The notes beneath the pieces are model-generated. The model saw only the letters and a list, made by a program, of their open reading frames with translations. It was not told the DNA's origin and made no database searches. Positions 5,847 to 28,391 of a DNA stretch of 64,000 nt are shown here, piece after piece. Numbering within the stretch: position 1 is the first letter of the stretch; every line of letters starts with the position of its first letter. The position numbers and the translations under genes are program-made. Source of the DNA: Pseudomonadota bacterium (lineage in GTDB: Bacteria; Pseudomonadota; Gammaproteobacteria; Steroidobacterales; Steroidobacteraceae); contig JAJZSQ010000001.1 of assembly GCA_021849615.1 (NCBI GenBank), positions 1-64,000 on the forward strand. The letters run 5' to 3'.

Positions 5847-5984
5847 CGTCGAGCCTCTCTGAGGGACTATTTCATTGAAAGCCGGACAGGGCTGCCCGTC
5901 TGGGGCCCATGCCTTGGGACCGATGGTACTATGTCTGCAGGGATGTTTGGATCGCTGCTCAGAATGCCCGACTGTCGGACCCGG

Positions 5985-8608: not shown

Positions 8609-10078
8609 TCATGTGCCGGCCAGCGGTTCGATGCCCCCGATGCACAGGTATTTGAGCTCGGTGTACTCGAGGATTCCATGCCGTGAGCCCTCGCGCCCCA
8701 TGCCGGACTCTTTGACTCCACCGAAAGGGGCAACTGCCGTAGATACGAGCCCCGTGTTGAGCCCGACCATGCCATATTCCAATGCTTCGGAAACACGCCA
8801 AGCCCGGGCAATGTCTCGGGTATAGACGTAGGACGCGAGGCCGAATTCCGTATCGTTTGCCATCTGCACAGCTTCAGATTCGCTCGTGAACCGGAACAGG
8901 GGGGCGACAGGGCCGAACGTCTCCTCCCGGGCGATGCGCATGTGCGGCGTGACTTCCGCGAGCACGGTGGGTTCGAAGAATGTTCCGCCAAGGGCATGGC
9001 GTTTCCCGCCGGCGACCACTCTGGCGCCCTTGCGGACGGCGTCATCGATCTGCGCCTCAACTTTCTGTACTGCTCTGGCATCGATGAGTGGGCCCTGCTC
9101 CACGTTCGCCTCCATGCCGTTGCCGACCCGCAGGTGCAGCGCCGCGGCGCTCAGCCGCGTCATGAACTCCTCGAAGATGCCATCCTGGACCAGGAAGCGG
9201 TTGGGGCATACGCAGGTCTGACCCGTATTGCGGAACTTGCCGTCAAGCGCCCCGCGCACCGCAGCGTCCACGTCGGCGTCTTCGAAAACGATGAAAGGTG
9301 CATTGCCACCGAGTTCCAGCGACAGCTTCTTCAGGGTGCCGGCGCACTGGGCCATCAGCAGCTTGCCGATGCGTGTCGATCCTGTAAATGAGAGCTTGCG
9401 CACGCGCGGGTTCGTGGCGAGCTCCCCGCCAACAACCTCGGCAGGGCCCGTCACGATATTGAACACGCCTGGCGGAATGCCGGCCCGCTGGGCAAGTTCC
9501 GCCAGCGCCAAAGCCGAGAACGGCGTTTGGGCGGCAGGCTTGCAGACGAACGTACAGCCCGCGGCAAGGGCGGGTGCGGCCTTGCGGGTGATCATCGCAG
9601 CAGGAAAGTTCCACGGCGTTATTGCAGCTGCAACCCCGATCGGCTGTCGAAGCACGAGTAGGCGCTTGTCGGCCGCGTGCGAGGGGATGATCTCACCGTA
9701 GATTCTTCGAGCCTCCTCGGCGAACCATTCGATGAATGACGCGGCAAAGGCGATTTCTCCCTTGGACTCCGAGAGCGGCTTACCTTGCTCGGCCGTCATC
9801 AGCGTCGCGAGGTCCGTCTGATGGGTCATCATCAGCTCGAACCAGCGGCGCAGCAGATCGCTACGCTCTTTTGCCGTACGTGCAGCCCAGCCTGGCTGCG
9901 CCCGCGCGGCAGCGTCGATGGCGCGACGGGTTTCCTCCACGGACAAATCCGGAACAGTACCCAGATTCTCCCCGGTGGCGGGGTTGACGATCGTCGTGAC
10001 AGCACCGCTGGCCGCATCCAGCCATTGGCCATCGAGGAAACATTTTTGGCGCAGCAGCGCCGGATCAGAAAGATTCAT
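8609..10078 (-). CDS. Aldehyde dehydrogenase, GabD family; likely sulfolactaldehyde dehydrogenase
   Basis: This NAD(P)-dependent aldehyde dehydrogenase has 489 residues from ATG 10076-10078, preceded by GGAG. It shows ITPWNFPAAMITRK (cofactor site), the catalytic Glu in LELGGNAPF, and the catalytic Cys in NTGQTCVCPNR. It resembles succinate-semialdehyde dehydrogenases. In Pseudomonas putida SQ1 a GabD-like enzyme oxidises sulfolactaldehyde to sulfolactate in the sulfo-Entner-Doudoroff pathway, and that role fits this cluster. It is the last gene of the minus-strand run that includes the SlcC-like, ComC-like and SuyAB-like genes, 80 bases after the slcC-like stop. Enzyme class is certain; the sulfonate substrate is inferred from context. 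Confidence 0.85.
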   Translation of the reverse strand: MNLSDPALLRQKCFLDGQWLDAASGAVTTIVNPATGENLGTVPDLSVEETRRAIDAAARAQPGWAARTAKERSDLLRRWFELMMTHQTDLATLMTAEQGKPLSESKGEIAFAASFIEWFAEEARRIYGEIIPSHAADKRLLVLRQPIGVAAAITPWNFPAAMITRKAAPALAAGCTFVCKPAAQTPFSALALAELAQRAGIPPGVFNIVTGPAEVVGGELATNPRVRKLSFTGSTRIGKLLMAQCAGTLKKLSLELGGNAPFIVFEDADVDAAVRGALDGKFRNTGQTCVCPNRFLVQDGIFEEFMTRLSAAALHLRVGNGMEANVEQGPLIDARAVQKVEAQIDDAVRKGARVVAGGKRHALGGTFFEPTVLAEVTPHMRIAREETFGPVAPLFRFTSESEAVQMANDTEFGLASYVYTRDIARAWRVSEALEYGMVGLNTGLVSTAVAPFGGVKESGMGREGSRHGILEYTELKYLCIGGIEPLAGT

Positions 10079-10158
10079 GGTGTGCTCCAGGTTCGAGGCA
10101 TCGCCGGCGGCATCACTCGGAGGTTTCGCCCGCCCGCATGGGCGCATCGGCAACTCTC

Positions 10159-11088
10159 TCACTTGCCGGACAGCGCATCCCGTACGGAACTCGCGATAAC
10201 TTCGCTGACGCGGACGTTCGATTCCACCGTGACGCCCGCTATATGCGGCGTCAAAATCGCGTTCGGCAGATCCTGCCACGCTGCGCCTGCCGCCGCACTG
10301 AGCGGCTCGGCTTCGAACACATCAATCGCTGCGCCGCCGAGACGTCCCGAGCGCAGCTCCTGAATCAGTGCGGCCTCATCGAGCACACCACCTCGCGCCG
10401 CATTCACGACGATCGCGCCCGCCTTCATCTGCGCAAGGGCTGCGGCATCGATCAGGTGCCGGGTCTTGGGCGTGAGCGGAGTATGCAGGCTGACGATATC
10501 GCTGCAGGCGAGCAATTCCGGTAATTCCATCCGTTCGATGCCACGCCACGCTGAGTCCGTCGCCGCTACAAAGGGATCGTGGGCAGCAACTTGCATTCCA
10601 AGAGCCAGGGCTTTGGCTGCCGTCAGGCGTGCGATCGCACCGAAGCCGATCAATCCAAGCCGCTTGCCAGACAATTCGTGGCCAATGAGATCCATGCGCG
10701 GCCAGGCGCCACCGGCAACCCTGTCGCTGGCGAACCAGGCGCGGCGCAGCAGGATCATGCCGGCGCAGATCACGTATTCCGCCACCGCCAGATCATTCGC
10801 CCCGGTCGCGGGGAACACTCGAATGCCACGGGCAGCGCAGGCGGGCATGTCGATATTGTCGAGCCCGACGCCCAGACGACCGACAACCTGAAGCTGCGGC
10901 GCGGCCTCGAGCAGCGCTGCGCGTACCTGGGTCCGGTTGCGAACGATGAGTGCGCGGCAATCGCTCAGCGCACCGATGAGCCGCTGCGGATCATCGACAA
11001 GTTTCGGATCGTACAGTACCTCGTATCCGCCGAGGTGTTCTTGAACGGCTTGTTCGTCCATGAACTCAGCAATCACGATATCGGTCAT
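10159..11088 (-). CDS. slcC: D-2-hydroxyacid dehydrogenase; likely (S)-sulfolactate dehydrogenase SlcC
   Basis: The protein has 309 residues of the SerA/D-isomer-specific 2-hydroxyacid dehydrogenase family. The nucleotide-binding loop is GLIGFGAIA (146-152) and the catalytic triad is Arg232 (NAARGG), Glu261 (DVFEAEP) and His282 (LTPHIAG). It lacks the C-terminal ACT domain of biosynthetic SerA. SlcC oxidises (S)-sulfolactate to sulfopyruvate in bacteria that degrade racemic sulfolactate. The start ATG overlaps the stop of the ComC-like gene (ATGA), and SuyA/SuyB-like genes lie just upstream, the same partners as in Paracoccus and Chromohalobacter. Without that context it would be called a phosphoglycerate or glyoxylate reductase homologue. 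Confidence 0.75.
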   Translation of the reverse strand: MTDIVIAEFMDEQAVQEHLGGYEVLYDPKLVDDPQRLIGALSDCRALIVRNRTQVRAALLEAAPQLQVVGRLGVGLDNIDMPACAARGIRVFPATGANDLAVAEYVICAGMILLRRAWFASDRVAGGAWPRMDLIGHELSGKRLGLIGFGAIARLTAAKALALGMQVAAHDPFVAATDSAWRGIERMELPELLACSDIVSLHTPLTPKTRHLIDAAALAQMKAGAIVVNAARGGVLDEAALIQELRSGRLGGAAIDVFEAEPLSAAAGAAWQDLPNAILTPHIAGVTVESNVRVSEVIASSVRDALSGK

Positions 11089-12101
11089 TGGGAAGCTCCC
11101 GCCGGTGAGGCGAGTTCGATCAGGGTCTGATGAAGTGCGGCGCCGATCTCGATCCCGGCGGATGCGGCGCGTGCACGGCTTGCCAGGCGACGGTCGCCGG
11201 GGATGCGCACCCCGCTCTCGCTGATCAGGGCAGCGAGCAGCTGACCCATCCGGCTGGCGAAATTGCCGGCCGAAAGTGGTTCGGCGTCCATCGCAAGCAG
11301 CAGCTGGCCGACGCCGGGCGAGGGGCCGCGGTCATCGAGGAATGAGCTGGCTTCCCAGCCGAAATGCCCGTTTGCCACCGCCCCGCACAGGACTTCGACG
11401 ATGAGCGCGAGCGCCGCGCCCTTCACACCGCCCGCCGGCGCCAGCGCTCCGGCAAGAGCCGCGTCTGGGTCGGTGGTGGGTTGACCGGATGCGTCCAGTG
11501 CCCATCCGGGCGGGATTGTCGCCCCGGCCTTCTTCGCCGCCACGATCCGGCTGCGTGCAACTTGGGAGAGCGCCATGTCGATCACCAGCGGTGCCCGATC
11601 AGTCAGTGGTGCGGCAAACGCGATCGGGTTGGTGCCCATCATGGGTTTGATGCCGCCCGCGAAGGGCATTGCTCGCGGGGTATTCGAGCAGACGAAGGCC
11701 ACGCAACCCTCGCGCGCAAGCCGCTCGGCGGTATATCCGGCAGCACCAATGTGATGAGAGCGGAAGATCGCCGCAACGGCAATGCCGCATTCCCGTGCCA
11801 TCGCCGGCAGTGCATTCACTGCCAGATCAAGTGCTGGATACGCAAAGCCGCCGGCCGCATCGATGCGCACTGCGCCGGCGCGCAATCGCCTGAGACTCGG
11901 CTGTGCGTGACCATCAACCTTCCCGGCCGTGACCTGGGCAGCATAGCTCGGTACCCGCCCGAGCCCGTGACCGGCCTGACCGTCAGCCTCCGCAGCGGCA
12001 AGGGCCCTTGCGGTCGAAACGCTCGGGCCCATCGCCGCGCCGCTCGCGGCGAGCGCCCGTTGTGCGAGTGTTTCGCATTCGGCAATGCTTAAAATGGGCA
12101 T
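11085..12101 (-). CDS. comC: Ldh2/MDH2 family oxidoreductase; likely (R)-sulfolactate dehydrogenase ComC
   Basis: The protein has 338 residues of the malate/L-lactate dehydrogenase type 2 family, which uses NAD(P) without a Rossmann fold. It shows HGLGRVPSY (45-53), the conserved histidine pair in FRSHHIGAAGY (His116/117), and MMGTNPIAFAAP. ComC reduces sulfopyruvate to (R)-sulfolactate. Paired with SlcC it inverts the stereocentre so that the (R)-specific sulfo-lyase can act. The gene lies between suyB-like (10-base gap) and slcC-like (4-base overlap), so the three are clearly one transcription unit. Family is secure; the sulfolactate specificity is inferred from neighbours. Confidence 0.75.
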   Translation of the reverse strand: MPILSIAECETLAQRALAASGAAMGPSVSTARALAAAEADGQAGHGLGRVPSYAAQVTAGKVDGHAQPSLRRLRAGAVRIDAAGGFAYPALDLAVNALPAMARECGIAVAAIFRSHHIGAAGYTAERLAREGCVAFVCSNTPRAMPFAGGIKPMMGTNPIAFAAPLTDRAPLVIDMALSQVARSRIVAAKKAGATIPPGWALDASGQPTTDPDAALAGALAPAGGVKGAALALIVEVLCGAVANGHFGWEASSFLDDRGPSPGVGQLLLAMDAEPLSAGNFASRMGQLLAALISESGVRIPGDRRLASRARAASAGIEIGAALHQTLIELASPAGASQ

Positions 12102-12110
12102 GCGGTTACT

Positions 12111-13286
12111 TTACGCACTTCGATAGAGCTTGGTCATTACGAACTCGTGATGTCCCAGCGCCTCGGCGGCGGTATAGCGCCCGTTTGCCGTTTGCACTAT
12201 CGCTTCGATCAGAGCGTCGCCAGCCTCTGCGATCGTCATTTCCCTGCGCACGACTCCGGAGACGTCCACATCGATATGCTCGCTCATGGTCCGTACCGTG
12301 CGGGGATTACCGCTGATCTTGATCACCGGCATGATCGGATTTCCAATGACGTTGCCTTGACCAGTCGGAAAGCAATGCACCACGTAGCCTGCCGCTGCCT
12401 GCAACGTGCAGCATTCGGCTGCTGCCGAGGAGGTATCCATGAAATAAAGTCCAGGACCGCGCGCGGGAGCTTCGGCCGGCTCGAGCACGTCGATGAACCG
12501 GACCTGCTTGCCGATCTTTTCCAGGTTGCCGAGCGCCTTCTCTTCGATAGTGGTCAGACCGCCGGCGATATTGCCTTTGGTCGGCTGGCTGTCGGAGAGG
12601 TCTGAGGTTTTGTGCGCTTCGATCACTTCATTCTGATAAGCGGTCCAGGTGCGCATGAATTTCTCGGCGATCTCGGGGCTTGCTGCACGCGCGGCGGCCA
12701 GATGTTCTGCGCCCGTGAGCTCGGAGGTCTCGCCGAAGCATCCGTACAGACCTGCCGGAATGAGCTTGTCGTACATGTTGCCGACCGTCGGGCACGATGC
12801 GAGCCCGGTCGTGGTGTCGCTCTCGCCACATTTTGCCGCCACCCACAGATCGGTCAACGGGCACTCCTCACGCACCTTTGCTGAAGCGAAATGCACGAAT
12901 TCCTTTGCCTTGCGCGACGCCGCTGCAATTGTCGCGATGTCACCGTTGCCCTCGATCGAGAAGCCTGCGACCGGCTTGCCAGTCTTCGCGATGCCATCGA
13001 CCACGTGTTGGGTCCACTGCGGTTCGATCCCGATGACGATGCATGCGGCAACATTGGGGTTTGCGCCGGTTCCGATCATCGTGCGAAAGTGCAATTCGAG
13101 ATCTTCACCGAACTGCAGACGTCCGTATGCATGGGGGAGCGCAATAGTGCCCTTGATGTGTGCAGCGACCGCTTCGCTGGCAGCGTTTGAAATGTCATCG
13201 AGCGGCAGGATTACGACGTGATTGCGCACGCCGACGCGGCCATTTTCGCGACGATAACCCCAGATGTTACTTTTTGCAGTTGCCAT
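12111..13286 (-). CDS. suyB: (R)-sulfolactate sulfo-lyase large subunit SuyB (UxaA family)
   Basis: The protein has 391 residues corresponding to the C-terminal part of altronate dehydratase UxaA. Family features are [38 protein letters not shown], and cysteines at 142, 153 (CGESDTT) and 165 that fit an iron-sulfur site. The second half has [20 protein letters not shown] and [17 protein letters not shown]. The separate small subunit next to it, and the dehydrogenases after it, match the split SuyA/SuyB organisation. SuyAB cleaves (R)-sulfolactate to pyruvate and sulfite. The alternative reading is a split altronate or galactarate dehydratase, but no hexuronate isomerase or aldonate reductase is nearby. 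Confidence 0.8.
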
Positions 13287-13290
13287 GATC

Positions 13291-13581
13291 TCACCAGCGC
13301 TTGGTCTTCAGGTTGTGGGTGTGCACGTGATCGCCGCGCCGGATCGGCGCCACGACTCGACCGATGTCCTGGCCGTACTTGATTACGGAGTCGCCGACCG
13401 CCAGATCGCGCAATGCAACCTTGTGGCCGATCGGTACGTCCTGATTGCACACAGCATGAATTTCACTGTTATCCTCGGTCACGACACCCAGGATGTCGCT
13501 TCCCGCGGAGAGATTCTCGACCACCACCACCCCGACGTTGTCGCGGCGGTCGTGGACGAGCAATTGGGGTTGGCTCGGCAT
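13291..13581 (-). CDS. suyA: (R)-sulfolactate sulfo-lyase small subunit SuyA (SAF domain)
   Basis: The protein has 96 residues consisting of one SAF domain, equivalent to the N-terminus of UxaA. It ends with the family signature [14 protein letters not shown] (residues 83-96), whose histidines line the active site. GAGGA lies about eight bases before the ATG at 13579-13581. Only four bases separate its stop from the suyB start, so the two subunits are translated together. It is the first gene of the minus-strand operon, and the proposed GntR operator lies 27 bases upstream of its start. Confidence 0.8.
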
Positions 13582-13607
13582 GGCGGAGATTCCTCAGTGG
13601 CACAGCT

Positions 13608-13624
13608 CTTATATAAGATATAAG
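13608..13624. promoter_or_regulatory. Palindromic operator between suyA and the dehydratase gene
   Basis: CTTATATAAGATATAAG sits in the 53-base gap between the divergent suyA and IlvD/Edd genes. The arms CTTATA and TATAAG are inverted around TAAGA, and the inner CTTATATAAG is itself a perfect palindrome. The identical 17 bases occur at 19585-19601 between gntR and the GH31 gene. The TATAAG arm can serve as -10 box for the rightward gene, so a bound repressor would block the promoters. Binding by the local GntR protein is inferred. Confidence 0.7.
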
Positions 13625-13634
13625 ATTACAGATT

Positions 13635-15410
13635 ATGATGACCAAGACAAGTCCCTCGCCGGGTCAGACTTCCGCCCGGCCGGAGGGGTCCTCGCGGACC
13701 CTGCGCAGCGCGCGCTGGTACCAGCGCGAGGACATGCGCGGCTTTGCACACCGCCAGCGCACCCAGCAGATGGGGTTGCGGCGCGAGGAGTTCCTGGGGC
13801 GCCCCGTCATCGCGATCATCAATACATGGAGTGAACTGAGCCCCTGCCACATTCATCTGCGGGACCGGGCCGAAGCCATCAAGCGGGGCGTCCTGCTGGC
13901 GGGTGGCTATCCAGTTGAGCTGCCGGCGCTGTCCGTCGGTGAGGTAATGGTCAAGCCGACGACCATGCTGTACCGCAATTTCCTCGCCATGGAAACCGAA
14001 GAGCTGTTGCGCTCCCATCCGGTGGATGGGGCGGTATTGCTCGGAGGATGCGACAAGTCGATTCCGGGCATGCTCATGGGCGCCTTCAGCATGGATCTGC
14101 CGGCGATCGTGTGCCCTGCTGGGCCGATGTCGACCGGGCAGTGGCGAGGCGTGCGCACGGGAGCGGGGACGCATACCAAGAAGTACTGGGACGAGCTGCG
14201 GGCGGGCAACATCACAGCAGATGACTGGATCGACCTCGAATCGCGCATGACCCGCTCGATTGGCACGTGCAATACCATGGGCACTGCTTCGACGATGAGC
14301 GGAATTGCCGAAGCTCTGGGAATGACGCTGTGCGGTGCGTCCTCGATTCCGGCGGCCGATTCCGGCCATGTGCGCATGGCGTCGGCCTGTGGCGCGCGGA
14401 TCGTCGCCATGGTGCAGGAAGACCTGCGTCCGTCCCGGATCGTTTCCCCGGCCTCGTTCAGGAATGCCGCGGTGATCTACATGGCGCTGGGCGGCTCGAC
14501 CAATGCGGCCATTCATCTCCTGGCGATGGCCGCCCGGGCCGGTGTCACGCTCACGCTCGACGATCTTGCTGCCATTGCGCGCGACATTCCCGTGTGCGCC
14601 AATCTGTTCCCCTCGGGCGACCGCCTCATGGAAGACTTTTACTTTGCCGGCGGACTGCCGGCGCTGCTGGCGAAGATCGCCTCGCGGCTGGAGCTCGGCT
14701 GCATGACCGTTGAGGGCCGCACGCTCGGTGAGGCGATCGCGGGGGCTCCTTGCCACGATGATGCCGTCATCCGCAACATCGATGATCCGGTGGTGCCGCT
14801 CAGTCGGGGGCGTACGCTTGACGTGCTGCGTGGCAATCTGTGTCCGGACGGTGCAGTACTGAAATCTAGTGCAGCCGACCCGCGGCTGATGCGCCATGAA
14901 GGTGCGGTACTCGTCTTTGATTCCCCGGGCGACATGGCCGCGCAGATTGATGACCCGGATCTCGCGATTGACGAAAATACGGTACTGGTGCTGCGCAACG
15001 CCGGGCCGGTCGGCGCCCCCGGAATGCCCGAGTGGGGCAACCTGCCGATCCCGCGTAAACTTCTCGCGCGGGGGGTACGCGACATGGTCCGACTCTGCGA
15101 TGGCAGGATGAGTGGCACGCATTACGGCTGCTGCATCGTGCATATTGCGCCTGAATCAGCGGTCGGCGGACCGCTCGCGCTGCTGCGTACCGGCGATCGT
15201 GTCCGCCTTGATGTAGCGGCAGGCCGTCTGGACATGCTCGTCCCGGACGAGGAGATCGCCGCTAGGCGTCGCGCGTGGCAGCCGCCGAGGCCTGCCTACC
15301 AGCGTTCGTATGCGGCGCTTTATCAGCAGCACGTCACGCAGGCTCCCGAGGGCTGCGATTTCGACTTCCTCGCAGGTCGGGCACCGACGCCGGAGCCCGA
15401 AATCTACTGA
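13635..15410 (+). CDS. IlvD/Edd family dehydratase; likely 6-deoxy-6-sulfogluconate dehydratase
   Basis: This iron-sulfur dehydratase has 591 residues. The cluster cysteines are visible at 71 (LSPCHIH), 139 (GGCDKSIPG) and 212 (TCNTMGTAS). The C-terminal signature DGRMSGTHYGCCIVHIAPE is also present. It is closest in style to the sugar-acid branch of the family (arabinonate, xylonate, 6-phosphogluconate dehydratases). In the sulfo-ED pathway such an enzyme makes 2-keto-3,6-dideoxy-6-sulfogluconate. It is the first gene of a five-gene operon with the aldolase, mutarotase, lactonase and SQ dehydrogenase. The ATG at 13635 has no ribosome binding site and lies 11 bases after the operator, which suggests a leaderless or nearly leaderless message. 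Confidence 0.85.
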   Translation: MMTKTSPSPGQTSARPEGSSRTLRSARWYQREDMRGFAHRQRTQQMGLRREEFLGRPVIAIINTWSELSPCHIHLRDRAEAIKRGVLLAGGYPVELPALSVGEVMVKPTTMLYRNFLAMETEELLRSHPVDGAVLLGGCDKSIPGMLMGAFSMDLPAIVCPAGPMSTGQWRGVRTGAGTHTKKYWDELRAGNITADDWIDLESRMTRSIGTCNTMGTASTMSGIAEALGMTLCGASSIPAADSGHVRMASACGARIVAMVQEDLRPSRIVSPASFRNAAVIYMALGGSTNAAIHLLAMAARAGVTLTLDDLAAIARDIPVCANLFPSGDRLMEDFYFAGGLPALLAKIASRLELGCMTVEGRTLGEAIAGAPCHDDAVIRNIDDPVVPLSRGRTLDVLRGNLCPDGAVLKSSAADPRLMRHEGAVLVFDSPGDMAAQIDDPDLAIDENTVLVLRNAGPVGAPGMPEWGNLPIPRKLLARGVRDMVRLCDGRMSGTHYGCCIVHIAPESAVGGPLALLRTGDRVRLDVAAGRLDMLVPDEEIAARRRAWQPPRPAYQRSYAALYQQHVTQAPEGCDFDFLAGRAPTPEPEIY

Positions 15411-15425
15411 TACAGGATCTATCCC

Positions 15426-16223
15426 ATGAGTGCAAACGCATTCAAGAAGACCGTGTTGAATTCTTCGGCCCGTCCGGCAGTGGGGTCATGGCTCATGTCG
15501 GCGTCTGCGACCATCGCAGAAGCGATGGGGCATAGCGGCTTCGACTTCCTGGTCGTGGACATGGAACACAGTCCCCTGCACATCGCCAATACCGTGGAAC
15601 TGCTGCGGGCAATCGCCGGTACCCCGGCGGTGCCGCTGGTGCGGATCGCAAACAATGACCAGGTGCTGGTCAAACAAGTGCTCGATTCCGGCGCGACCAG
15701 TGTGATGTTTCCGTTCATCCAGACGGTCGAGCAGGCGCGAGCGGCGGTAGGCTACACGCGCTACCCGCCTCACGGGGTGCGGGGTGTTGCAGCCATGCAT
15801 CGCGGATCAAAATACGGTTCCGAGAAAGGATATCTGCAGACGGCCAATGACGGCGTCGCGGTGGTGATCCAGCTCGAGACGCCGGAGGCGATCGAGCGCC
15901 TCGACGATATCGCTGCAGTACCGGGCGTCGACTCGCTGTTCGTCGGCCCGGGCGATCTGGCGGCGGCGATGGGACACATCGGCGATATCGGGCATGCGCA
16001 GGTACAAGCCCTGATCGAGCGCGCTGCGCGCGCTGCACGTGCCGTGGGCAAACCCATCGGCATCGTCGGAGGCACGCCACAGATGGTTCAGCGGTTCTTC
16101 GAGTATGGCTATACCTGGAGTGCGATTGCCTCGGACCTTGCATTGCTGACGGGACGTGCTGCCGAGTGGCTGGAGAGTCTCGGACGCGGTACCCGTGCGG
16201 CACCTGCGGCGCCCGCGTACTGA
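15426..16223 (+). CDS. HpcH/HpaI family aldolase; likely KDSG aldolase
   Basis: This class II, metal-dependent 2-keto-3-deoxy sugar acid aldolase has 265 residues. The family residues are in place: His48 in DMEHSP, Arg73 in LVRIANND, Glu151 in IQLETPEA and Asp177 in VGPGDLAAAMG. The last two are the metal ligands. In sulfo-ED it splits 2-keto-3,6-dideoxy-6-sulfogluconate into pyruvate and sulfolactaldehyde. AGGAT precedes the ATG, 15 bases after the dehydratase stop. The substrate is inferred from the cluster; the same family also cleaves 2-keto-3-deoxy-rhamnonate and related acids. Confidence 0.85.
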   Translation: MSANAFKKTVLNSSARPAVGSWLMSASATIAEAMGHSGFDFLVVDMEHSPLHIANTVELLRAIAGTPAVPLVRIANNDQVLVKQVLDSGATSVMFPFIQTVEQARAAVGYTRYPPHGVRGVAAMHRGSKYGSEKGYLQTANDGVAVVIQLETPEAIERLDDIAAVPGVDSLFVGPGDLAAAMGHIGDIGHAQVQALIERAARAARAVGKPIGIVGGTPQMVQRFFEYGYTWSAIASDLALLTGRAAEWLESLGRGTRAAPAAPAY

Positions 16224-16226
16224 TGA

Positions 16227-17114: not shown

Positions 17115-17977
17115 GTTCATTCGAACTGGTCTATCCGGCGAATTGCCGGCTCGGGGAATCTCCGGTCTGGTGTGCACTTAGCGCCGAACTGCTGTTCGTC
17201 GACATCACAGGACAATCGCTGCATCGCTTCTCGCCTGCTTCCGGTACGCTCGCAACGCTCCGCGTCGAGGAAGATATCGGCTTCGTTGCGCCCACCCGTT
17301 CGGGCGGCTTCGTTGCCGGACTGCGTTCAGGCGTCTGGCTGCTGGACGAGCATGCACGGAAAGTGAGACTTCTGGCGACCAATCCTGGTGATGAGCGCAC
17401 GCTTCGATTCAATGACGGCGCAATTGATCCGTGCGGACGCTTGATCATCGGCACGATTGACCAGACGCGCCGCGCCGGCCGCGCCGGCCTGTATCGGCTC
17501 GGCGCCGACGGGTTAAGCGAAATCGCCTCGGGCCTTCTCACGTCCAACGGAGCGGCATTCGCGCCTGATGGGCGAACCCTGTACCATTCCGACACACCGC
17601 GTTTTGTCATCTATCGGCGTGATTATTCGGCACAGACAGGCAGTGCGGGACCCGCAGCCGTGTTTGCCCGTCTCGATCCGGATGCCCCAGATCGAGCGCG
17701 TCCCGATGGAGGCGCGGTCGACAGCGCCGGTAACTACTGGTCTGCCCTTTACGAGGGATCGCGTGTCCACTGCTACGATGCGCAGGGACGACTGCTCGCG
17801 GCCTATCCTGTTCCGGCGCGTATCCCGACCATGCCGGCGTTCGGCGGCAGCGATTTGAAAACGATATATCTCACGACTGCCATGGACGCCGACGACGGTG
17901 GCGGCCTTTATGCGATGCGTGTCGAGACGGCCGGAGTCCGGCCGAACTCATTCGATGAGGAGCCTTTCTTGCCATGA
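17111..17977 (+). CDS. SMP-30/gluconolactonase family; likely 6-deoxy-6-sulfogluconolactonase
   Basis: This six-bladed propeller lactonase has 288 residues. The divalent-metal and catalytic residues appear in order: Glu16 in RLGESPVW, Asn in RFNDGAIDP, Asn in TSNGAAFAPDGRTLYHSD, and Asp in DGGAVDSAGNYW. It would hydrolyse the sulfogluconolactone formed by SQ dehydrogenase. The ATG at 17111 overlaps the mutarotase stop, and the TGA overlaps the start of the dehydrogenase (ATGA). This tight coupling supports a shared pathway. The frame stays open upstream to 16760, but that part overlaps the mutarotase gene and is not coding. Confidence 0.85.
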   Translation: MSSFELVYPANCRLGESPVWCALSAELLFVDITGQSLHRFSPASGTLATLRVEEDIGFVAPTRSGGFVAGLRSGVWLLDEHARKVRLLATNPGDERTLRFNDGAIDPCGRLIIGTIDQTRRAGRAGLYRLGADGLSEIASGLLTSNGAAFAPDGRTLYHSDTPRFVIYRRDYSAQTGSAGPAAVFARLDPDAPDRARPDGGAVDSAGNYWSALYEGSRVHCYDAQGRLLAAYPVPARIPTMPAFGGSDLKTIYLTTAMDADDGGGLYAMRVETAGVRPNSFDEEPFLP

Positions 17978-18741
17978 TCCAGAGTGAATATTCTGGCGCG
18001 ACCTACCACTGCCTGCGCGACCGTTCGATTCTGATCACTGGCGGTGCCTCCGGCATTGGAGCGGAGCTGGTGCGCGCCTTCGCCGCGCAGCAGGCAAAGG
18101 TCACGTTTCTGGACATCGATGAAGAACGCGGCGAGTCGTTGGCACGGGATACCGGCAGCCGCTTTCTGTGCTGCGATCTGCTCGATCTCGATGCGCTGCG
18201 TGCTGCCGTCGTCAAGGTCGAGGAGCAATGCGGTGGAGTCGACGTTCTGGTCAACAACGCCGGTAGGGACGATCGACAGGCGTTTCTCGACATCCAGCCG
18301 CCACAGTGGCATCGGATGCTGGCGCTGAATCTGGATCATCAGTTCTTCGCTTCCCAGGCGGTCGCGTCGGGGATGGCCCGCCGCGGAGGTGGTTCGATCA
18401 TTATGCTCGGGTCGATATCCTGGATGCGAGGCCGACCCGGCATGGCCGGGTATACGACCGCAAAGGCCGCCATCAATGGTCTGACGCGAACCCTGGCGCG
18501 AGAACTCGGACCGTCTGGAATCCGCGTCAATTGCATCGTCCCCGGCGCCATACTGACGGAGCGACAGAAAGCGCTCTGGTTGACGCCGGAGCTCGATGCG
18601 GAGTTCCTCCGGTTGCAGGCCTTGAAATTCCGCCTGACGCCAGAGCATGTCGCGAAGTTGGCTCTATATCTCGGTTCGGACGAGAGCAACGGTTGCACCG
18701 GCGCGAATTTCGTCGTCGATGCCGGTTTGACGCAGAACTGA
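17974..18741 (+). CDS. Short-chain dehydrogenase; likely sulfoquinovose 1-dehydrogenase
   Basis: This classical SDR enzyme has 255 residues: cofactor loop TGGASGIG (22-29), NNAG (94-97), Asn119, active-site Ser (LGSIS, 147 or 149), Tyr160 and Lys164. SQ dehydrogenase of P. putida SQ1 belongs to this family and oxidises SQ to the lactone with NAD. The four-base overlap with the lactonase gene fits the next step in the pathway. It is the last gene of the rightward operon and faces gntR tail to tail with five bases between them. The sugar specificity is inferred. Confidence 0.85.
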   Translation: MIQSEYSGATYHCLRDRSILITGGASGIGAELVRAFAAQQAKVTFLDIDEERGESLARDTGSRFLCCDLLDLDALRAAVVKVEEQCGGVDVLVNNAGRDDRQAFLDIQPPQWHRMLALNLDHQFFASQAVASGMARRGGGSIIMLGSISWMRGRPGMAGYTTAKAAINGLTRTLARELGPSGIRVNCIVPGAILTERQKALWLTPELDAEFLRLQALKFRLTPEHVAKLALYLGSDESNGCTGANFVVDAGLTQN

Positions 18742-18746
18742 TCTGC

Positions 18747-19466
18747 TCAGGTGAGCGTGACGGCGTACACGAGATTCTCGGAGCTGACCCGGCTCAAGCG
18801 CCACTCGACTTTGCGGTCCGTGAGGCCTACGGCAATACGATCGATGACCAGGATGGGTGCGCCCGTGGAAATTCCGAGTTCCTCATGATCCTCGTCGGTG
18901 GCCAGCTGCGCACTGAGTTCCTCGTGTGTCGCAACGATGGTCACGCCGAAGCCCGATTGGTAGAGCGTGTACAGGCTGTTCGGCAGCGGCATCTGCTTTT
19001 CGATGCCGGGAAAAATGGCTGCCGGCAGGATGATCAATTCGCGGATCGCCGGCACACCCTCGATAAGCCGAACTCTGGAGAGTTCGACGACACGGGCGTC
19101 GCGGTCAAGCTCGAGCCGGGTGCGCTCGCTTGCTCGCGCCGCCCGAACGCGGGCACTTTCGGTGCCCAGCGAGGGGGTCAGGCGCTTGCCACCAGGGCGA
19201 GCGAGGCGGAAGAACCTGAACTGGGTCCGCTCCTGGGTGCTCTCGGCAATGAAAGTGCCCTTGCCCTGGCGGCGCTCGAGTACTTTCTCTGCGGTGAGCG
19301 CATCGAGTACCTTGCGCATCGTGCCCTGGCTGACTCCCAGTTCGCGCGCCAGATTCTGCTCGCTGGGCAGGGCTTCTCCGGGTCGCCATGCACCCTCCGC
19401 CACGCGGCGGATCACGATGTCATACACCTGACGGTATAAGGGCCGGTATCCGGGGGTCTCGCTCAC
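18747..19466 (-). CDS. GntR/HutC family regulator of the sulfosugar cluster
   Basis: The protein has about 239 residues. An N-terminal winged helix (PLYRQVYDIVIRRVAEGAWRPG, then LPSEQNLARELGVSQGTMRK) is followed by a UTRA effector domain of the HutC subgroup. I chose GTG 19464-19466 because AGGA precedes it and it gives the usual HutC N-terminus. The frame is open to an ATG at 19577, which would add 37 basic residues. The gene is divergent from the GH31 gene, and the shared gap contains the 17-base palindrome repeated at the suyA/dehydratase promoter. UTRA domains bind small metabolites such as sugars, so an SQ-derived inducer is likely but not shown. Confidence 0.85.
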   Translation of the reverse strand: MSETPGYRPLYRQVYDIVIRRVAEGAWRPGEALPSEQNLARELGVSQGTMRKVLDALTAEKVLERRQGKGTFIAESTQERTQFRFFRLARPGGKRLTPSLGTESARVRAARASERTRLELDRDARVVELSRVRLIEGVPAIRELIILPAAIFPGIEKQMPLPNSLYTLYQSGFGVTIVATHEELSAQLATDEDHEELGISTGAPILVIDRIAVGLTDRKVEWRLSRVSSENLVYAVTLT

Positions 19467-19584
19467 TGCTGTCCTGTCTTTTTGAGTGTGCGCGGATCGT
19501 CCGCGCGCCGTTACTTTACCTGTCTGACCGTACCGCCGGGGCCGCGCCCGTATCCGTGCGGCACTATTGCGTCTCACGGCTAGT

Positions 19585-19601
19585 CTTATATAAGATATAA
19601 G
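19585..19601. promoter_or_regulatory. Palindromic operator between gntR and the GH31 gene
   Basis: CTTATATAAGATATAAG is an exact copy of the site at 13608-13624. It lies 17 bases before the GH31 ATG and upstream of gntR, so it could serve both autoregulation and control of the sulfoquinovosidase operon. Confidence 0.7.
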
Positions 19602-19618
19602 TCTACTCTGCGCCCATT

Positions 19619-21637
19619 ATGAATATTATAGAGCTTGCTGACGGTTTCGAGTTGCTGCTGGGGGGGCGGGTGCTGTTGCGACACCGCACCAGTGATCCGT
19701 GCCTGTTCGTCGGCGCGGGCACGGGGCGTTACCACATGCGCCAGGGGCACTTTCAGGTCGAGGACGAAGTCTCGGCCCGGCTGCCCCTGGCACATGCGGT
19801 CGTAACGAGAGACGACACGGGATTCCGGGTGCAGCTGGCGCAGAGCCGCGACACCCCGGTGCTCCTCGAGCTACGCTGCAGCGGCAGCGACGAACATGCC
19901 ACGGTGCATCTTCAGTCGCGTGAGCCAGAGTTCGATCGGCTGTGGCTGCGGATTCTCGCCGAGGAAAGCGAACACGTCTGGGGCGGCGGTGAGCAGATGT
20001 CGTACTTCGACCTGCGCGGGCGCCGCTTCCCGTTATGGACGTCCGAACCGGGCGTCGGACGTGACAAGAGCACGGAGATTACCTTCCAGGCCGACCGGGC
20101 CTCCGGCGCCGGCGGGGACTATTACACGACCAATTATCCCCAGCCGACCTACCTATCGTCGCGCCGCTACGCGCTACACGTGCACAGCACCGCGTACAGC
20201 GCATTCGATTTCCGTCATGCGACGTTTCATGAGATCGAGGTGTGGGCCATCCCCGAGCGCATCGAGCTGTGGGGGCGTGCACATTATACCGCTCTGGTCT
20301 CGGCGCTGTCAGAGCACTTCGGTCGCCAGCCCGTGCTGCCGGAGTGGATCCGCCAAGGAGCGATTATCGGCCTGAAGGACGGCGCTCGCAGCTTTGAGCG
20401 TCTGGAGAAGATCGAAGCAGCCGGTGCGGCGGTCTCAGGGCTATGGTGCGAGGATTGGGTGGGGGTCCGTCAGACCAGCTTCGGCACCCGTCTGTTCTGG
20501 GACTGGAAGTGGAATGGCGATCGCTATCCGGCACTTGCTGAGCGCATCACGTCTCTGCGTGCGCGTGGCATCCGCTTTCTCGGATACGTCAACCCATATT
20601 TGTGTACCGACGGCACACTGTACCCGCAGGCTGCGAGCGCCGGATATCTGGTCCGGCAACTCGAGTGCGACGAACCTTATCTCGTCGATTTTGGCGAATT
20701 CGTCTGCGGCATGGTCGACTTCACCCAGCCGCAGGCCTGTGAATGGTTCGAAGATCAGGTCATCGGTCGAAATCTCATCGACTTCGGACTGTCTGGCTGG
20801 ATGGCCGACTTCGGTGAGTACCTGCCCGTGGACGTACGGCTGTCCTCCGGCGAAAGTGGCGAGCTTGCACACAATGCATGGCCGGTCCATTGGGCCCGGG
20901 TCAACGCGCAGGCCGTCGCACGCCGCGGCAAAATGGCCGAGGCGGTTTTCTTCATGCGCGCCGGCTTCTCGGGTGTCCAGCGTTACTGCCCATTGCTGTG
21001 GGCCGGCGATCAGTCGGTCGACTTCACCCGTCACGATGGTCTGCAGACCGTCATCTGCGCAGCGCTCTCATCAGGGCTTCTCGGCAACGCATATCACCAC
21101 AGCGATATTGGCGGCTATACCAGTCTGTTTGGCAATGTACGCACCGCTGAACTGCTGCAGCGCTGGGCGGAAATGGCAGTGTTTACGGCCGTGATGCGAA
21201 CCCACGAGGGAAACCGGCCACGCGAGAATCTCCAAATCGACGAGGATCCGCAGGTCCTCGAACACTTCGCGCGCATGACGCGAATGCACCGGCACCTGGC
21301 GCCGTATCTGCGCGCTCTGAGCGAAGAGGCGGCCGCAACCGGACTGCCCCTTCAGCGGCCCCTGTTTCTGCATTTCGAGGGCGATCTGCGGTGCTATGAA
21401 ACGCAGACCACGTATCTTCTGGGAAGCGATCTGCTCGTTTCACCCGTGATCACGGCCGGCAAAAATCTCTGGCGCACGTATCTGCCGGCGGGTGCCCGCT
21501 GGCGGCACGTGTGGAGCGGATCGGAATTCGACGGCGGGCTTGAAGTGCAGGTCGATGCCCCGATAGGGCAGCCTCCGGTCTTCTACCGAACGGACAGTAG
21601 GTACACGGACCTGTTTGCCGGGCTGGCGGGCTGCTGA
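19619..21637 (+). CDS. yihQ: GH31 sulfoquinovosidase (YihQ type, KERWY subgroup)
   Basis: This glycoside hydrolase family 31 protein has 672 residues. It carries the nucleophile Asp397 in GWMADFGEYLP and acid/base Asp464 in WAGDQSVDF, at places equivalent to D405 and D472 of E. coli YihQ. The sulfonate-recognition set reads Lys253 (GLKDG), Glu278 (WCEDW), Arg291 and Trp294 (TRLFWDW) and Tyr500 (SDIGGYTSLF). This is the KERWY variant described for the Agrobacterium sulfoquinovosidase, against QQRWY in YihQ. Ordinary GH31 alpha-glucosidases lack the Arg/Trp pair. It releases SQ from sulfoquinovosyl glycerol. There is no signal peptide, so it acts in the cytoplasm. It is followed by an MFS carrier and glpD. 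Confidence 0.9.
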   Translation: MNIIELADGFELLLGGRVLLRHRTSDPCLFVGAGTGRYHMRQGHFQVEDEVSARLPLAHAVVTRDDTGFRVQLAQSRDTPVLLELRCSGSDEHATVHLQSREPEFDRLWLRILAEESEHVWGGGEQMSYFDLRGRRFPLWTSEPGVGRDKSTEITFQADRASGAGGDYYTTNYPQPTYLSSRRYALHVHSTAYSAFDFRHATFHEIEVWAIPERIELWGRAHYTALVSALSEHFGRQPVLPEWIRQGAIIGLKDGARSFERLEKIEAAGAAVSGLWCEDWVGVRQTSFGTRLFWDWKWNGDRYPALAERITSLRARGIRFLGYVNPYLCTDGTLYPQAASAGYLVRQLECDEPYLVDFGEFVCGMVDFTQPQACEWFEDQVIGRNLIDFGLSGWMADFGEYLPVDVRLSSGESGELAHNAWPVHWARVNAQAVARRGKMAEAVFFMRAGFSGVQRYCPLLWAGDQSVDFTRHDGLQTVICAALSSGLLGNAYHHSDIGGYTSLFGNVRTAELLQRWAEMAVFTAVMRTHEGNRPRENLQIDEDPQVLEHFARMTRMHRHLAPYLRALSEEAAATGLPLQRPLFLHFEGDLRCYETQTTYLLGSDLLVSPVITAGKNLWRTYLPAGARWRHVWSGSEFDGGLEVQVDAPIGQPPVFYRTDSRYTDLFAGLAGC

Positions 21638-21644
21638 GCGGCTC

Positions 21645-22883
21645 ATGACCGAGTCACGCCGACGCTGGCTGCTGTTCCTGCTCATCGTCTCCGGCGTGCT
21701 GAATTACGCCGATCGCCAGATCATTGCGGTTCTCAAGCCCATGCTGCAGCGGGACCTGCACTGGACCGACGTCGACTACGGCAACATCACCTCGCTATTT
21801 CAGCTGGCTACAGCGTGCGCCTATCTCGGCGCAGGACGCCTGGTCGATCGTCTGGGCTGGAGGCGGGCCAACAGTTGGGGCGTCGGCGCCTGGAGTCTGG
21901 CTGCAATGAGCCATGCGTTCGCACGCACCGTGGGACAATTCTCTGCAGCGCGCGTCGCCTTGGGGGTCACCGAGTCGCTGGGAACGCCGGCCGCAGTCAA
22001 GACAGTCGCTGTCCTGTTCGCCGCACGCACCCGCTCCGTCGCGCTGGGTGCGATGAATGCGGCCAGCAATCTCGGCGCGATCCTCACGGCACTTGCGGTG
22101 CCGCCACTGGCGCTTGCGGCCGGCTGGCAGCCGGCGTTCCTCGTCATCGGCGGGCTGGGACTGCTTTGGGTCTTCGGGTGGGAATGGGTCACCCGCAAGC
22201 ATGACTTGATCGACACGCCGGCCACTAAGATTGCGGCGTCGCCGGCGCGACGCAACGAGTGGAGCGCCTGGCGGGATTTGCTGCACGACCGCAGAACCTG
22301 GGCGGTCATTGGCGCAAAGATGCTTTCCGATCAGGTGTGGTGGTTCCTGCTGTTCTGGATTCCGGACTTTTTTCATACCGTCTTCCATCTCGACATGGTG
22401 CAGTTCGCCGCACCTGTTGCCGTCATTTACGCAGCAGCGGCCGCGGGATCCGTGATTGGTGGATATGCGTCTGGTCGACTCATCGGCCGCGGCCGCGATC
22501 CCGTCGCGGCCCGCAAGCTCACCATGCTCGTGTGCGCACTCGTCGTCACACCGCTGCCGCTCGCCCTGGCAACCCATTCGCCGTGGCTGGCTGTCGCATT
22601 GCTCAGCACAACGCTCGCGGCACACCAGGGTTACGCAGTGAGCCTGTTTGCATTGGCCACGGATGTCACGCCCAGTGCGCGTATCGGAACGCTGATCAGC
22701 ATCGCAGCGTTGTGCGGAAATATCGCCGGTATCGCAATCTTGCAGGCGGCGGGGTGGCTGATTGGCGGCGGCCACGGGTACCTGCCGCTTTTCCTGGTCG
22801 CGGCATGCTCGTATCTGCTCGGACTTCTGTGGCTGCAGCTATTGCTGCCGCGCACTGACCAGGCCCGCACGGAGGGAGTATGA
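21645..22883 (+). CDS. MFS transporter, ACS/ExuT-like; likely sulfosugar uptake
   Basis: The protein has about 412 residues and twelve membrane segments. The anion:cation symporter group is suggested by LNYADRQIIAVLKPMLQ in helix 1 and by VTESLGTPAAVKTV in the first half. Members of this group carry hexuronates, sugar acids and other anionic sugars, which suits SQ or its glycerol glycoside. I chose ATG 21645, eight bases after the GH31 stop. The in-frame ATG at 21615 would overlap the GH31 gene. The stop overlaps the glpD start. It is clearly a paralogue of the carrier at 26084-27334. Confidence 0.8.
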   Translation: MTESRRRWLLFLLIVSGVLNYADRQIIAVLKPMLQRDLHWTDVDYGNITSLFQLATACAYLGAGRLVDRLGWRRANSWGVGAWSLAAMSHAFARTVGQFSAARVALGVTESLGTPAAVKTVAVLFAARTRSVALGAMNAASNLGAILTALAVPPLALAAGWQPAFLVIGGLGLLWVFGWEWVTRKHDLIDTPATKIAASPARRNEWSAWRDLLHDRRTWAVIGAKMLSDQVWWFLLFWIPDFFHTVFHLDMVQFAAPVAVIYAAAAAGSVIGGYASGRLIGRGRDPVAARKLTMLVCALVVTPLPLALATHSPWLAVALLSTTLAAHQGYAVSLFALATDVTPSARIGTLISIAALCGNIAGIAILQAAGWLIGGGHGYLPLFLVAACSYLLGLLWLQLLLPRTDQARTEGV

Positions 22884-25916: not shown

Positions 25917-26083
25917 CGCCCATACCCCCCGGGGAGTTGATCTGCCTGTGGGTCAAGTTATGTCAGTGCGGCGGGCGGGTCAACCGGCTTCGGCGCATTT
26001 GTTCAGAGATTTTATGCGCAAGGGGTTGTTCGGGTGACAAGGGGCGAAATGAATCGCGCTAATCATGAGTGGGTGTTCGTCTC

Positions 26084-28347: not shown

Positions 28348-28391
28348 GGGGAATTCCAGTACTGAAGGGATCACGTCAAACAGGGGGGAGC

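What the first reader, a model, noticed from the sequence alone, without database searches (positions are those of the whole stretch)
8609..22883. One cluster appears to carry sulfoquinovose to pyruvate plus sulfite
In the described sulfo-Entner-Doudoroff system (Pseudomonas putida SQ1) SQ is converted to sulfolactate, which is excreted and then desulfonated by other bacteria with SuyAB. Here the rightward operon encodes dehydratase, aldolase, mutarotase, lactonase and SQ dehydrogenase. The leftward operon, 53 bases away, encodes SuyA/SuyB, ComC-like, SlcC-like and a GabD-like aldehyde dehydrogenase. A GH31 sulfoquinovosidase and carriers follow. The gene set covers every step from SQ to two pyruvates and sulfite. 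I know of no described sulfo-ED cluster with the sulfo-lyase attached, though I cannot search.
Basis: partly seen in the sequence, partly recalled or inferred. Interest (0 to 1): 0.95.

Follow-up and report, generated by a model that had tools for sequence, protein, structure and literature searches.

The report
Sulfosugar-to-sulfite pathway under one switch
A draft proteobacterial genome carries, side by side and with the same short DNA motif (a likely control site) in front of its main gene blocks, every gene predicted to be needed to break the plant-lipid sugar sulfoquinovose down to pyruvate and sulfite by a route that is usually described as shared between two species.

Summary
In detail: the 11 enzyme genes named are at the stated places, SuyA and the dehydratase 53 bp apart. 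The substrate is most likely sulfoquinovose (SQ): the dehydrogenase is closest to a solved SQ dehydrogenase and keeps its sulfonate-binding arginines, the GH31 enzyme is closest to solved sulfoquinovosidases, and the dehydratase is IlvD-type, not the type of the published sulfofucose pathway. SuyB groups with SuyBs of sulfonate operons, away from GarD/UxaA. Sulfo-lyase and sulfo-ED genes sit together in 14 of 80 related loci, in two gene orders. New here: a GntR regulator related to those beside suyAB elsewhere, and a 12-bp palindrome found three times in the 3.19-Mb genome, all at promoters of this cluster (suyA/dehydratase, gntR/GH31, a TonB receptor). Sulfosugar-plus-SuyAB clusters are already in print (sulfofucose in Paracoccus, sulfo-TAL in Thermotogae/Chloroflexi, an EMP-like one in an actinobacterium), and other single-cell SQ-to-sulfite routes (SQ mono- and dioxygenases) are known. 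So this is a new variant: canonical SQ sulfo-ED plus SuyAB, which none of nine paper searches turned up. No activity is shown; the fate of the sulfite is open.

The parts
8609..10078 (-). GabD/SSADH-type aldehyde dehydrogenase, predicted sulfolactaldehyde dehydrogenase
   Evidence: PF00171 and NCBIfam SSADH above cut-off; by motif spacing the W-N-F, two Arg, Cys and Glu positions named for RlGabD in passages of PMC10599462 are present; best PDB match is a succinate-semialdehyde dehydrogenase, 8c54 (recalled as RlGabD) ranks sixth, so sequence does not decide the substrate
10159..11088 (-). SlcC-like 2-hydroxyacid dehydrogenase, predicted (S)-sulfolactate dehydrogenase
   Evidence: PF02826/PF00389; homologues beside suyAB in other loci
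11085..12101 (-). ComC-like dehydrogenase, predicted (R)-sulfolactate dehydrogenase; with SlcC a predicted racemase
   Evidence: PF02615; best NCBIfam model L-sulfolactate dehydrogenase, 178 bits, below its cut-off of 500
12111..13286 (-). SuyB, catalytic subunit of predicted (R)-sulfolactate sulfo-lyase
   Evidence: PF04295/PF20629; tree; many near hits called sulfo-lyase beta by the jgi source, others only UxaA family hydrolase by ncbi
13291..13581 (-). SuyA, small subunit
   Evidence: 96-aa ORF directly before SuyB; SAF domain; kept in relatives
13607..13618 (.). likely operator copy 1, TCTTATATAAGA, in the divergent suyA/dehydratase gap
13635..15410 (+). IlvD/EDD-type dehydratase, predicted sulfogluconate dehydratase
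   Evidence: PF00920/PF24877; with 14 tandem loci and L081 one group, SH-aLRT 99
15426..16223 (+). HpcH/HpaI aldolase, predicted KDSG aldolase
   Evidence: PF03328
16227..17114 (+). aldose-1-epimerase, predicted SQ mutarotase
   Evidence: PF01263
17111..17977 (+). SMP-30 type lactonase, predicted sulfogluconolactonase
   Evidence: PF08450; start
17974..18741 (+). SDR dehydrogenase, predicted SQ 1-dehydrogenase
   Evidence: best PDB match 9gwu, named Sulfoquinovose 1-dehydrogenase, 294 bits against 220 for the next; binding and catalytic residues kept
18747..19577 (-). GntR-UTRA regulator, related to GntR proteins beside suyAB elsewhere
   Evidence: PF00392/PF07702; 39-47% identical to those in L066, L067, L077, L089, L096, L098
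19584..19595 (.). likely operator copy 2, in the divergent gntR/GH31 gap
19619..21637 (+). GH31 enzyme, predicted sulfoquinovosidase
   Evidence: 953 bits to 5ohy (recalled as the A. tumefaciens sulfoquinovosidase), 690 bits to 5aed, named Sulfoquinovosidase; five sulfonate-site positions kept in 60 of 60 rows
21615..22883 (+). MFS carrier, possible SQ or SQ-glycerol importer (true start probably a little downstream)
   Evidence: PF07690
22880..24475 (+). GlpD glycerol-3-phosphate dehydrogenase
   Evidence: NCBIfam above cut-off; follows GH31 in relatives
24396..25916 (-). GlpK glycerol kinase
   Evidence: NCBIfam TIGR01311 above cut-off
26069..27334 (+). second MFS carrier
   Evidence: PF07690; homologues in the same place in several relatives
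27289..28347 (+). Gfo/Idh oxidoreductase, sugar 3-ketoreductase-like; role here inferred
   Evidence: PF01408; second-best PDB sequence is a sugar 3-ketoreductase; 8qc2/8qc3 are not among the 60 of 82 matches shown
28332..29168 (+). 3-keto-disaccharide hydrolase family protein; role here inferred
   Evidence: PF06439
29158..30852 (+). GMC oxidoreductase, possible glycoside 3-dehydrogenase
   Evidence: PF05199
30845..31486 (+). gluconate 2-dehydrogenase subunit 3 family protein, likely partner of the GMC protein
   Evidence: PF13618
31550..31561 (.). likely operator copy 3, just upstream of the TonB receptor
31591..33918 (+). TonB-dependent receptor, possible outer-membrane uptake of SQ glycosides
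   Evidence: PF07715/PF00593; start and signal sequence by reading

Best explanation
This 25-kb stretch is predicted to encode one complete, jointly controlled route that would take sulfoquinovose all the way to two pyruvates and sulfite inside a single cell. Inferred steps: a TonB receptor and MFS carriers bring in SQ or SQ-glycerol; GH31 frees SQ, and GlpK/GlpD take the glycerol. The mutarotase, NAD-linked SQ dehydrogenase, lactonase, IlvD-type dehydratase and HpcH aldolase (sulfo-ED) give pyruvate and (S)-sulfolactaldehyde. The GabD-like enzyme makes (S)-sulfolactate; SlcC and ComC turn it over to (R)-sulfolactate through sulfopyruvate; SuyAB splits that to pyruvate and sulfite. The racemase pair has a reason to be here: the aldolase step leaves the S form while SuyAB takes the R form. 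A GntR protein of the kind found beside suyAB elsewhere probably binds TCTTATATAAGA at three promoters and keeps the set off until a sulfonate appears. Shown directly: the genes, their families and order, the three sites, and the recurrence in other genomes. Not shown: any activity, binding or growth.
For: Families. SQ specificity: SDR best to a solved SQ dehydrogenase; D99, R101, R152, Q198, N119, S147, Y160, K164 the same in 72 of 72 aligned rows, R154 in 68 of 72 (roles from passages of PMC12133307); GH31 953 bits to 5ohy, five sulfonate-site positions in 60 of 60 rows. SuyB: with SuyBs beside hps genes or sulfate exporters, away from GarD/UxaA. Linkage: 14 of 80 loci, 12 divergent and 2 co-directional. 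Order sample of 147 genomes: the 4 with a dehydratase of at least 80% identity all have SuyB within 0.4 kb; of 24 sampled in the family 4 have both, none SuyB alone; in the genus 3 of 10 have both and 7 neither. Shared site: 3 copies in the whole genome, also with 1 mismatch allowed; 20 exact copies in 9 relatives, all 20 at the suyA/dehydratase, gntR/GH31 or TonB-receptor gap; exact copies in 0 of 61 loci without SuyB; the same site before suyA in L089 and L096.
Against: No biochemistry and no isolate. The aldehyde dehydrogenase scores higher with ordinary SSADHs than with 8c54, and 8 of the 14 tandem loci show no such gene in the held stretch: L011, L012 and L021 have 2.3-6.5 kb of room, five end early. 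GH31 was found in 8 of 14, a fragment in L012; L021, L047 and L065 show none although 2.6-6.7 kb follow. L047 shows no GntR match. The only PF00174 protein of the genome looks like MsrP, not a sulfite dehydrogenase, so the sulfite outlet is unresolved; three TauE-family proteins say little, as TauE rings in 14 of 14 control genomes. The genome is 87% complete. No SuyAB-specific NCBIfam model fired. Four of the suyAB comparison loci (L077, L090, L097, L099) lack the site. Operator binding is inferred.
Confidence: 0.85

Rival explanations
1. The cluster is a sulfofucose pathway like the published tandem of Paracoccus wurundjeri, with SQ as a minor or no substrate.
For: Same overall plan: SDR, lactonase, aldolase, SlcC/ComC/SuyAB, and in the S. 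mexicanum locus L096 the same palindrome before both sets.
Against: The published pathway uses an MR/MLE-type dehydratase and no sulfofucosidase was identified; here the dehydratase is IlvD-type and a GH31 sulfoquinovosidase is predicted. L096 shows no IlvD or GH31 match at 1e-8 and its best SDR is 35% identical to this one.
Confidence: 0.05
2. Two neighbouring but separate pathways: sulfo-ED that excretes sulfolactate, and a SuyAB operon for scavenged sulfolactate.
For: Both modules exist alone in other genomes; in the order sample 12 of 16 genomes with a SuyB match lack the close dehydratase.
Against: Shared divergent gap with one palindrome, the same palindrome at the GH31 and TonB promoters and nowhere else in the genome; linkage kept through a change of gene order; of 24 sampled genomes of the family 4 have both and none has SuyB alone; one (G024) has only a 53% dehydratase relative.
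Confidence: 0.08
3. The linkage is a binning or assembly artefact.
For: The window comes from a draft genome in 218 contigs.
Against: All genes lie on one contig, C104, and the same divergent junction recurs in 12 contigs of other genomes.
Confidence: 0.01

Closest known systems
[quoted passage not shown]
   Same: SQ dehydrogenase, lactonase, IlvD-type dehydratase, HpcH aldolase and GabD-type sulfolactaldehyde dehydrogenase families
   Different: There sulfolactate is described as exported (PMC12890257 section 9); here SlcC, ComC and SuyAB are attached and share the palindrome
Tandem sulfofucolytic-sulfolactate sulfolyase pathway of Paracoccus wurundjeri Merri (PMC12421959)
   Same: ED-type sulfosugar cleavage joined to SlcC/ComC/SuyAB in one cluster; complete use of the carbon with sulfite release shown there
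   Different: Sulfofucose, and no growth on SQ; MR/MLE dehydratase, no glycosidase identified, sulfolactaldehyde dehydrogenase not identified; here IlvD dehydratase, GH31 and a GabD-like gene
Extended sulfo-TAL clusters with SuyAB in Thermotogae and Chloroflexi (PMC9594981, section 11)
   Same: SQ pathway with SuyAB in the cluster, complete carbon use proposed
   Different: Transaldolase route, not Entner-Doudoroff
GH188 Y160 cluster of Actinobacteria bacterium IMCC26103 (PMC11465081)
   Same: Predicted SQase with sulfolactaldehyde dehydrogenase and both sulfolactate sulfo-lyase subunits
   Different: Most like sulfo-EMP, with GH188
Sulfo-SMO/ASMO and sulfo-SDO/ASDO pathways
   Same: One organism takes SQ to sulfite (passages of PMC13372026 and PMC12890257)
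   Different: Oxygenase cuts the C-S bond of SQ itself, leading to glucose; no sulfolactate
suyAB operon on a Methylobacterium oryzae plasmid (L089)
   Same: SuyB 79% identical, related GntR, identical palindrome twice before suyA
   Different: No sulfosugar genes annotated in the 19-kb stretch

Membership tests
sulfo-ED pathway for SQ | SDR SQ dehydrogenase with Arg152/Arg154-type sulfonate pocket | tested here: met
sulfo-ED pathway for SQ | IlvD/EDD-type sulfogluconate dehydratase (PF00920) | tested here: met
sulfo-ED pathway for SQ | SMP-30 lactonase and HpcH aldolase in the cluster | tested here: met
sulfo-ED pathway for SQ | SQ turned to pyruvate and sulfolactaldehyde by these enzymes | not testable with these tools
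   needs assays
GH31 sulfoquinovosidase | sulfonate-site residues (K/E/R/W/Y set; set and numbering recalled) | tested here: met
(R)-sulfolactate sulfo-lyase SuyAB | separate small SuyA and large SuyB subunits | tested here: met
(R)-sulfolactate sulfo-lyase SuyAB | SuyB groups with SuyB of sulfonate operons, not with GarD/UxaA | tested here: met
(R)-sulfolactate sulfo-lyase SuyAB | desulfonation of (R)-sulfolactate | not testable with these tools
   needs assay
sulfofucolytic tandem pathway | MR/MLE-type (PF13378/PF02746) dehydratase | tested here: not met
   no such match among the cluster proteins scanned; IlvD instead
GabD/SlaB sulfolactaldehyde dehydrogenase | preference for sulfolactaldehyde over succinate semialdehyde | tested here: inconclusive
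   residues shared with both kinds
sulfite-oxidising outlet (SorA type) | molybdenum sulfite dehydrogenase in the genome | tested here: inconclusive
   one PF00174 match, MsrP-like by reading; genome 87% complete

The most novel reading that the evidence does not exclude
The regulator of the sulfolactate-lyase module has captured an entire sulfolipid-headgroup regulon: outer-membrane receptor, sulfoquinovosidase, glycerol use, sulfo-ED and desulfonation are one switchable unit that ends, for the sulfo-ED route, the division of labour between SQ degraders and sulfolactate mineralisers. The joining happened more than once (the GH31 form here, a suyAB-slcC-comC-dehydratase-SQDH-GH188 form in another family, and the sulfofucose form), and the GMC/3-keto-hydrolase/3-ketoreductase genes inside the cluster are a second, C3-oxidising way of cutting SQ glycosides.
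Probability: 0.3. Interest if true: 0.78.

Novelty: new variant of a known kind. Interest (0 to 1): 0.55.

Why it matters
SQ is made on a gigaton scale (abstract of PMC13372026), and in sulfoglycolytic routes its sulfur is usually drawn as passing to a second species as sulfolactate or DHPS. A single-cell sulfo-ED-to-sulfite route would change how sulfur release is read from genomes: a sulfo-ED cluster would no longer by itself mean sulfolactate excretion. The 12-bp palindrome and the GntR give a handle for finding further members and possibly unknown carriers, such as the TonB receptor that has the third copy.

Tried and rejected
Considered and rejected: SuyB as altronate/galactarate dehydratase; the cluster as sulfofucose-specific; the window's Gfo/Idh protein as a GH188 sulfoquinovosidase (8qc2/8qc3 not among the 60 of 82 matches shown), whereas the Gfo/Idh in L126 is GH188-like (452 bits to 8qc2). 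A simple sigma-70 and terminator scan found fewer sites than shuffles do. A test whether the GH31 and GH188 tandem SuyBs are one clade did not reject one clade (p-AU 0.166), so repeated origin is not shown. No aldolase or lactonase match at 1e-8 was found in the L126/L127 stretches, and none among five further L126 ORFs by Pfam, so that second form is incomplete as seen. Rows dropped: L007 and L074 (under 85% of SuyB) and L001 (the window itself) from the SuyB tree; four GarD/UxaA-type rows and L092 from the second SuyB tree; SQDH and GH31 rows under 50% identity, under 80% of the query, or with stops from the residue counts. In one search the column labelled Asp45 used residue 49 of the window protein by my slip (47 was meant); that row is not used. 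KERWY as a name is recalled; one search found no paper with it. In one search, L081 was labelled outside the tandem group because its SuyB lies on another contig of its genome (L124). The overall interest was lowered from 0.60 to 0.55 on rechecking, because passages already describe single-organism SQ-to-sulfite routes.


Full report
WHAT WAS CHECKED. The window lies on contig C104 of a 3.19-Mb draft genome in 218 contigs, 87% complete. Two starts were moved: the aldehyde dehydrogenase to 10078 and the lactonase to 17111. The genome has one match to the SuyB family PF04295, the one in the window. Among the 120 listed RpoB relatives, the ones with an organism name below phylum are two from Steroidobacteraceae at 88% identity; the best hits, 94%, are unnamed. 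The host is probably a gammaproteobacterium near that family.

WHICH SUGAR. The SDR matches 9gwu, named Sulfoquinovose 1-dehydrogenase, at 294 bits, the next chain at 220. The residues that passages of PMC12133307 name for SQ and the sulfonate (Asp99, Arg101, Arg152, Gln198) and the catalytic tetrad are the same in 72 of 72 rows aligned (window plus 71 of 80 loci that passed identity, length and stop limits); Arg154 in 68 of 72. The GH31 protein scores 953 bits with 5ohy (named yihQ; recalled as the A. tumefaciens enzyme) and 690 with 5aed, named Sulfoquinovosidase; the five sulfonate-site positions are kept in 60 of 60 rows (residue set and numbering recalled). The published sulfofucose tandem uses an MR/MLE dehydratase, its organism did not grow on SQ, and E. 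coli and A. tumefaciens sulfoquinovosidases are reported there as inactive on a sulfofucoside. Here the dehydratase is IlvD/EDD. The S. mexicanum locus L096, from a species that paper lists, shows no IlvD or GH31 match at 1e-8 and its best SDR is 35% identical to the window's. SQ is therefore the likely substrate.

THE SULFO-LYASE. In a tree of 30 rows, SuyB of the window and 13 sulfo-ED-linked loci form one group (100/99) inside a set with the SuyBs of C. pinatubonensis HN-2 (beside hpsN, hpsO), Paracoccus versutus (beside a sulfate exporter) and Methylobacterium oryzae (beside TauE, an NAD(P)-dependent oxidoreductase, an Ldh-family oxidoreductase, a GntR, a molybdopterin oxidoreductase and a sulfate exporter), and apart from GarD and UxaA. 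Several outgroup branches are long and their own places unsure. SlcC and ComC fit the stereochemistry: PMC12421959 and PMC9594981 describe the S form from sulfo-ED type cleavage and (R)-sulfolactate as the SuyAB substrate, with SlcC/ComC as proposed racemase.

RECURRENCE. The one scan of genome contigs with the dehydratase kept 80 loci of 367 relatives. By tblastn, SuyB lies in the held stretch of 18 of 80 (L002-L012, L021, L047, L065, L066, L067, L074, L077), next to the dehydratase block in 14 and 5-9 kb away in 4; in one more (L081) suyAB and the palindrome were found on another contig of the same genome. The other 61 show none in the stretch held. Of the 14, 13 also have aldolase, mutarotase, lactonase and SQDH matches (L002 ends before SQDH). 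Twelve are divergent like the window; L021 and L065 have suyA-suyB-comC-slcC running into the dehydratase in one direction. GH31 was found in 8 of 14 plus a fragment in L012; the GabD-like gene in 6 of 14. In a sample of 147 genomes of the order, 7 have a dehydratase match at 1e-150, 4 of them at 80% identity or more and 3 at 52-59%; 16 have SuyB at 1e-60; the 4 carry both within 0.4 kb. In the genus 3 of 10 have both and 7 neither. In a sample of 398 genomes of the phylum, 7 have the dehydratase at 1e-230, 17 have a SuyB match at 1e-60 (one of them, G210, only 37% identical), 4 have both, and 3 of these on one contig. Two of the three (L126, L127, one genus of another family) run suyA-suyB-slcC-comC-dehydratase-SQDH followed by a Gfo/Idh gene, which in L126 matches GH188 structures (452 bits to 8qc2; that 8QC2 is GH188 is from PMC11465081). 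No aldolase or lactonase match was seen there. SuyB of this form lies outside the window's group in the best tree, but one shared group is not rejected (p-AU 0.166).

ONE SWITCH. A GntR-UTRA gene lies between SQDH and GH31 and has a counterpart after SQDH in most relatives read; L047 shows none and L009 ends early. The palindrome TCTTATATAAGA stands in the 53-bp suyA/dehydratase gap, in the gntR/GH31 gap and 29 bp before the likely start of a TonB receptor. In the whole genome there are 3 copies, and still 3 when one mismatch is allowed; the reversed control gives 0 and 1; a mononucleotide estimate is 0.012 copies. Nine relatives have 1-3 exact copies each, 20 in all, and all 20 lie in one of these three kinds of gap. 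At least one exact copy is in 12 of the 14 adjacent loci (L012 has a near form; L065 begins inside suyA), and none in the 61 loci without SuyB. The GntR is 39-47% identical to GntR proteins beside suyAB in L066, L067, L077, L089, L096 and L098; none like it at 1e-5 in L090, L097, L099; among the 61 loci without SuyB only 3 weak matches occur. The same exact site stands before suyA in L089 (twice) and L096, and in L096 also about 120 bp before the aldolase of the sulfofucose-type set; L098, L067 and L066 have one-base variants; L077, L090, L097 and L099 have none. I infer that a regulator native to sulfolactate-lyase operons came to control sulfosugar genes.

WIDER SET. GlpD and GlpK beside GH31 suggest use of SQ-glycerol. 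The TonB receptor is a candidate importer; one paper search for sulfoquinovose with TonB-dependent listed 4 papers, none about SQ uptake by title or abstract start. The GMC oxidoreductase, its subunit-3 partner, the 3-keto-disaccharide hydrolase and the Gfo/Idh protein look like a glycoside C3-oxidation set; the first, third and fourth are kept in 3 relatives (L119, L121, L123) and missing between the same neighbours in L122 and L125. Its role here is open.

PRIOR ART. Read: PMC12421959 (abstract, introduction, results parts 1-2 of 3, section 11, discussion part 1 of 2), PMC9594981 (abstract, sections 11 and 12), PMC11465081 (part 1 of 2 of the text), PMC12890257 (section 9 and passages); passages only of PMC13372026, PMC12133307, PMC10599462, PMC12330013, PMC10755693, PMC8873060, PMC6278857. 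The 2015 sulfo-ED paper is not held. Searches, aimed at this question, and 93, 94 and 108, aimed at side questions, turned up no report of a canonical SQ sulfo-ED cluster with SuyAB; for most listed papers only titles and abstract starts were seen, and only open-licence papers are held. PMC12421959 mentions a Klebsiella strain that made sulfolactate and about 10% sulfate from SQ, mechanism unresolved. SQ mono- and dioxygenase routes already give sulfite in one organism. PMC13372026 mentions Elstera relatives with GH31 and a partial sulfo-ED cluster lacking a clear lactonase; here Niveispirillum (L047) has the tandem with a lactonase match.

VERDICT. The finding is real and its reading is well supported by sequence. 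It is a new variant of a known idea rather than the first of its kind; the shared palindrome is the strongest new evidence that the two halves work as one. What happens to the sulfite is not settled.

Noticed in passing
27289-31486: Gfo/Idh, 3-keto-disaccharide hydrolase, GMC oxidoreductase and subunit-3 genes inside the cluster look like a glycoside C3-oxidation set; the first three have counterparts in relatives L119, L121, L123 and are absent between the same neighbours in L122 and L125.
   Followed up: partly
31591-33918: TonB-dependent receptor with the third copy of the palindrome just upstream; candidate outer-membrane carrier for SQ glycosides.
   Followed up: partly
L126:2651-9795 and L127:6177-13316: suyA-suyB-slcC-comC-dehydratase-SQDH followed by a Gfo/Idh gene (GH188-like in L126) in two genomes of another family, without an aldolase or lactonase match nearby.
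   Followed up: partly
L096:13008 and L096:15671: In the S. mexicanum sulfofucose-type locus the same 12-bp site precedes both the aldolase-lactonase genes and suyAB.
   Followed up: partly
5931-7229: Patatin-like phospholipase with a lipoprotein-like start, near the cluster; could strip acyl chains from sulfolipid, no evidence beyond position.
   Followed up: no
2016-3161: ISL3-family transposase about 5.4 kb from the cluster's left end.
   Followed up: no
L086:1183-2972: The genome's only PF00174 protein looks like MsrP followed by an MsrQ-like membrane protein, not a sulfite dehydrogenase.
   Followed up: partly
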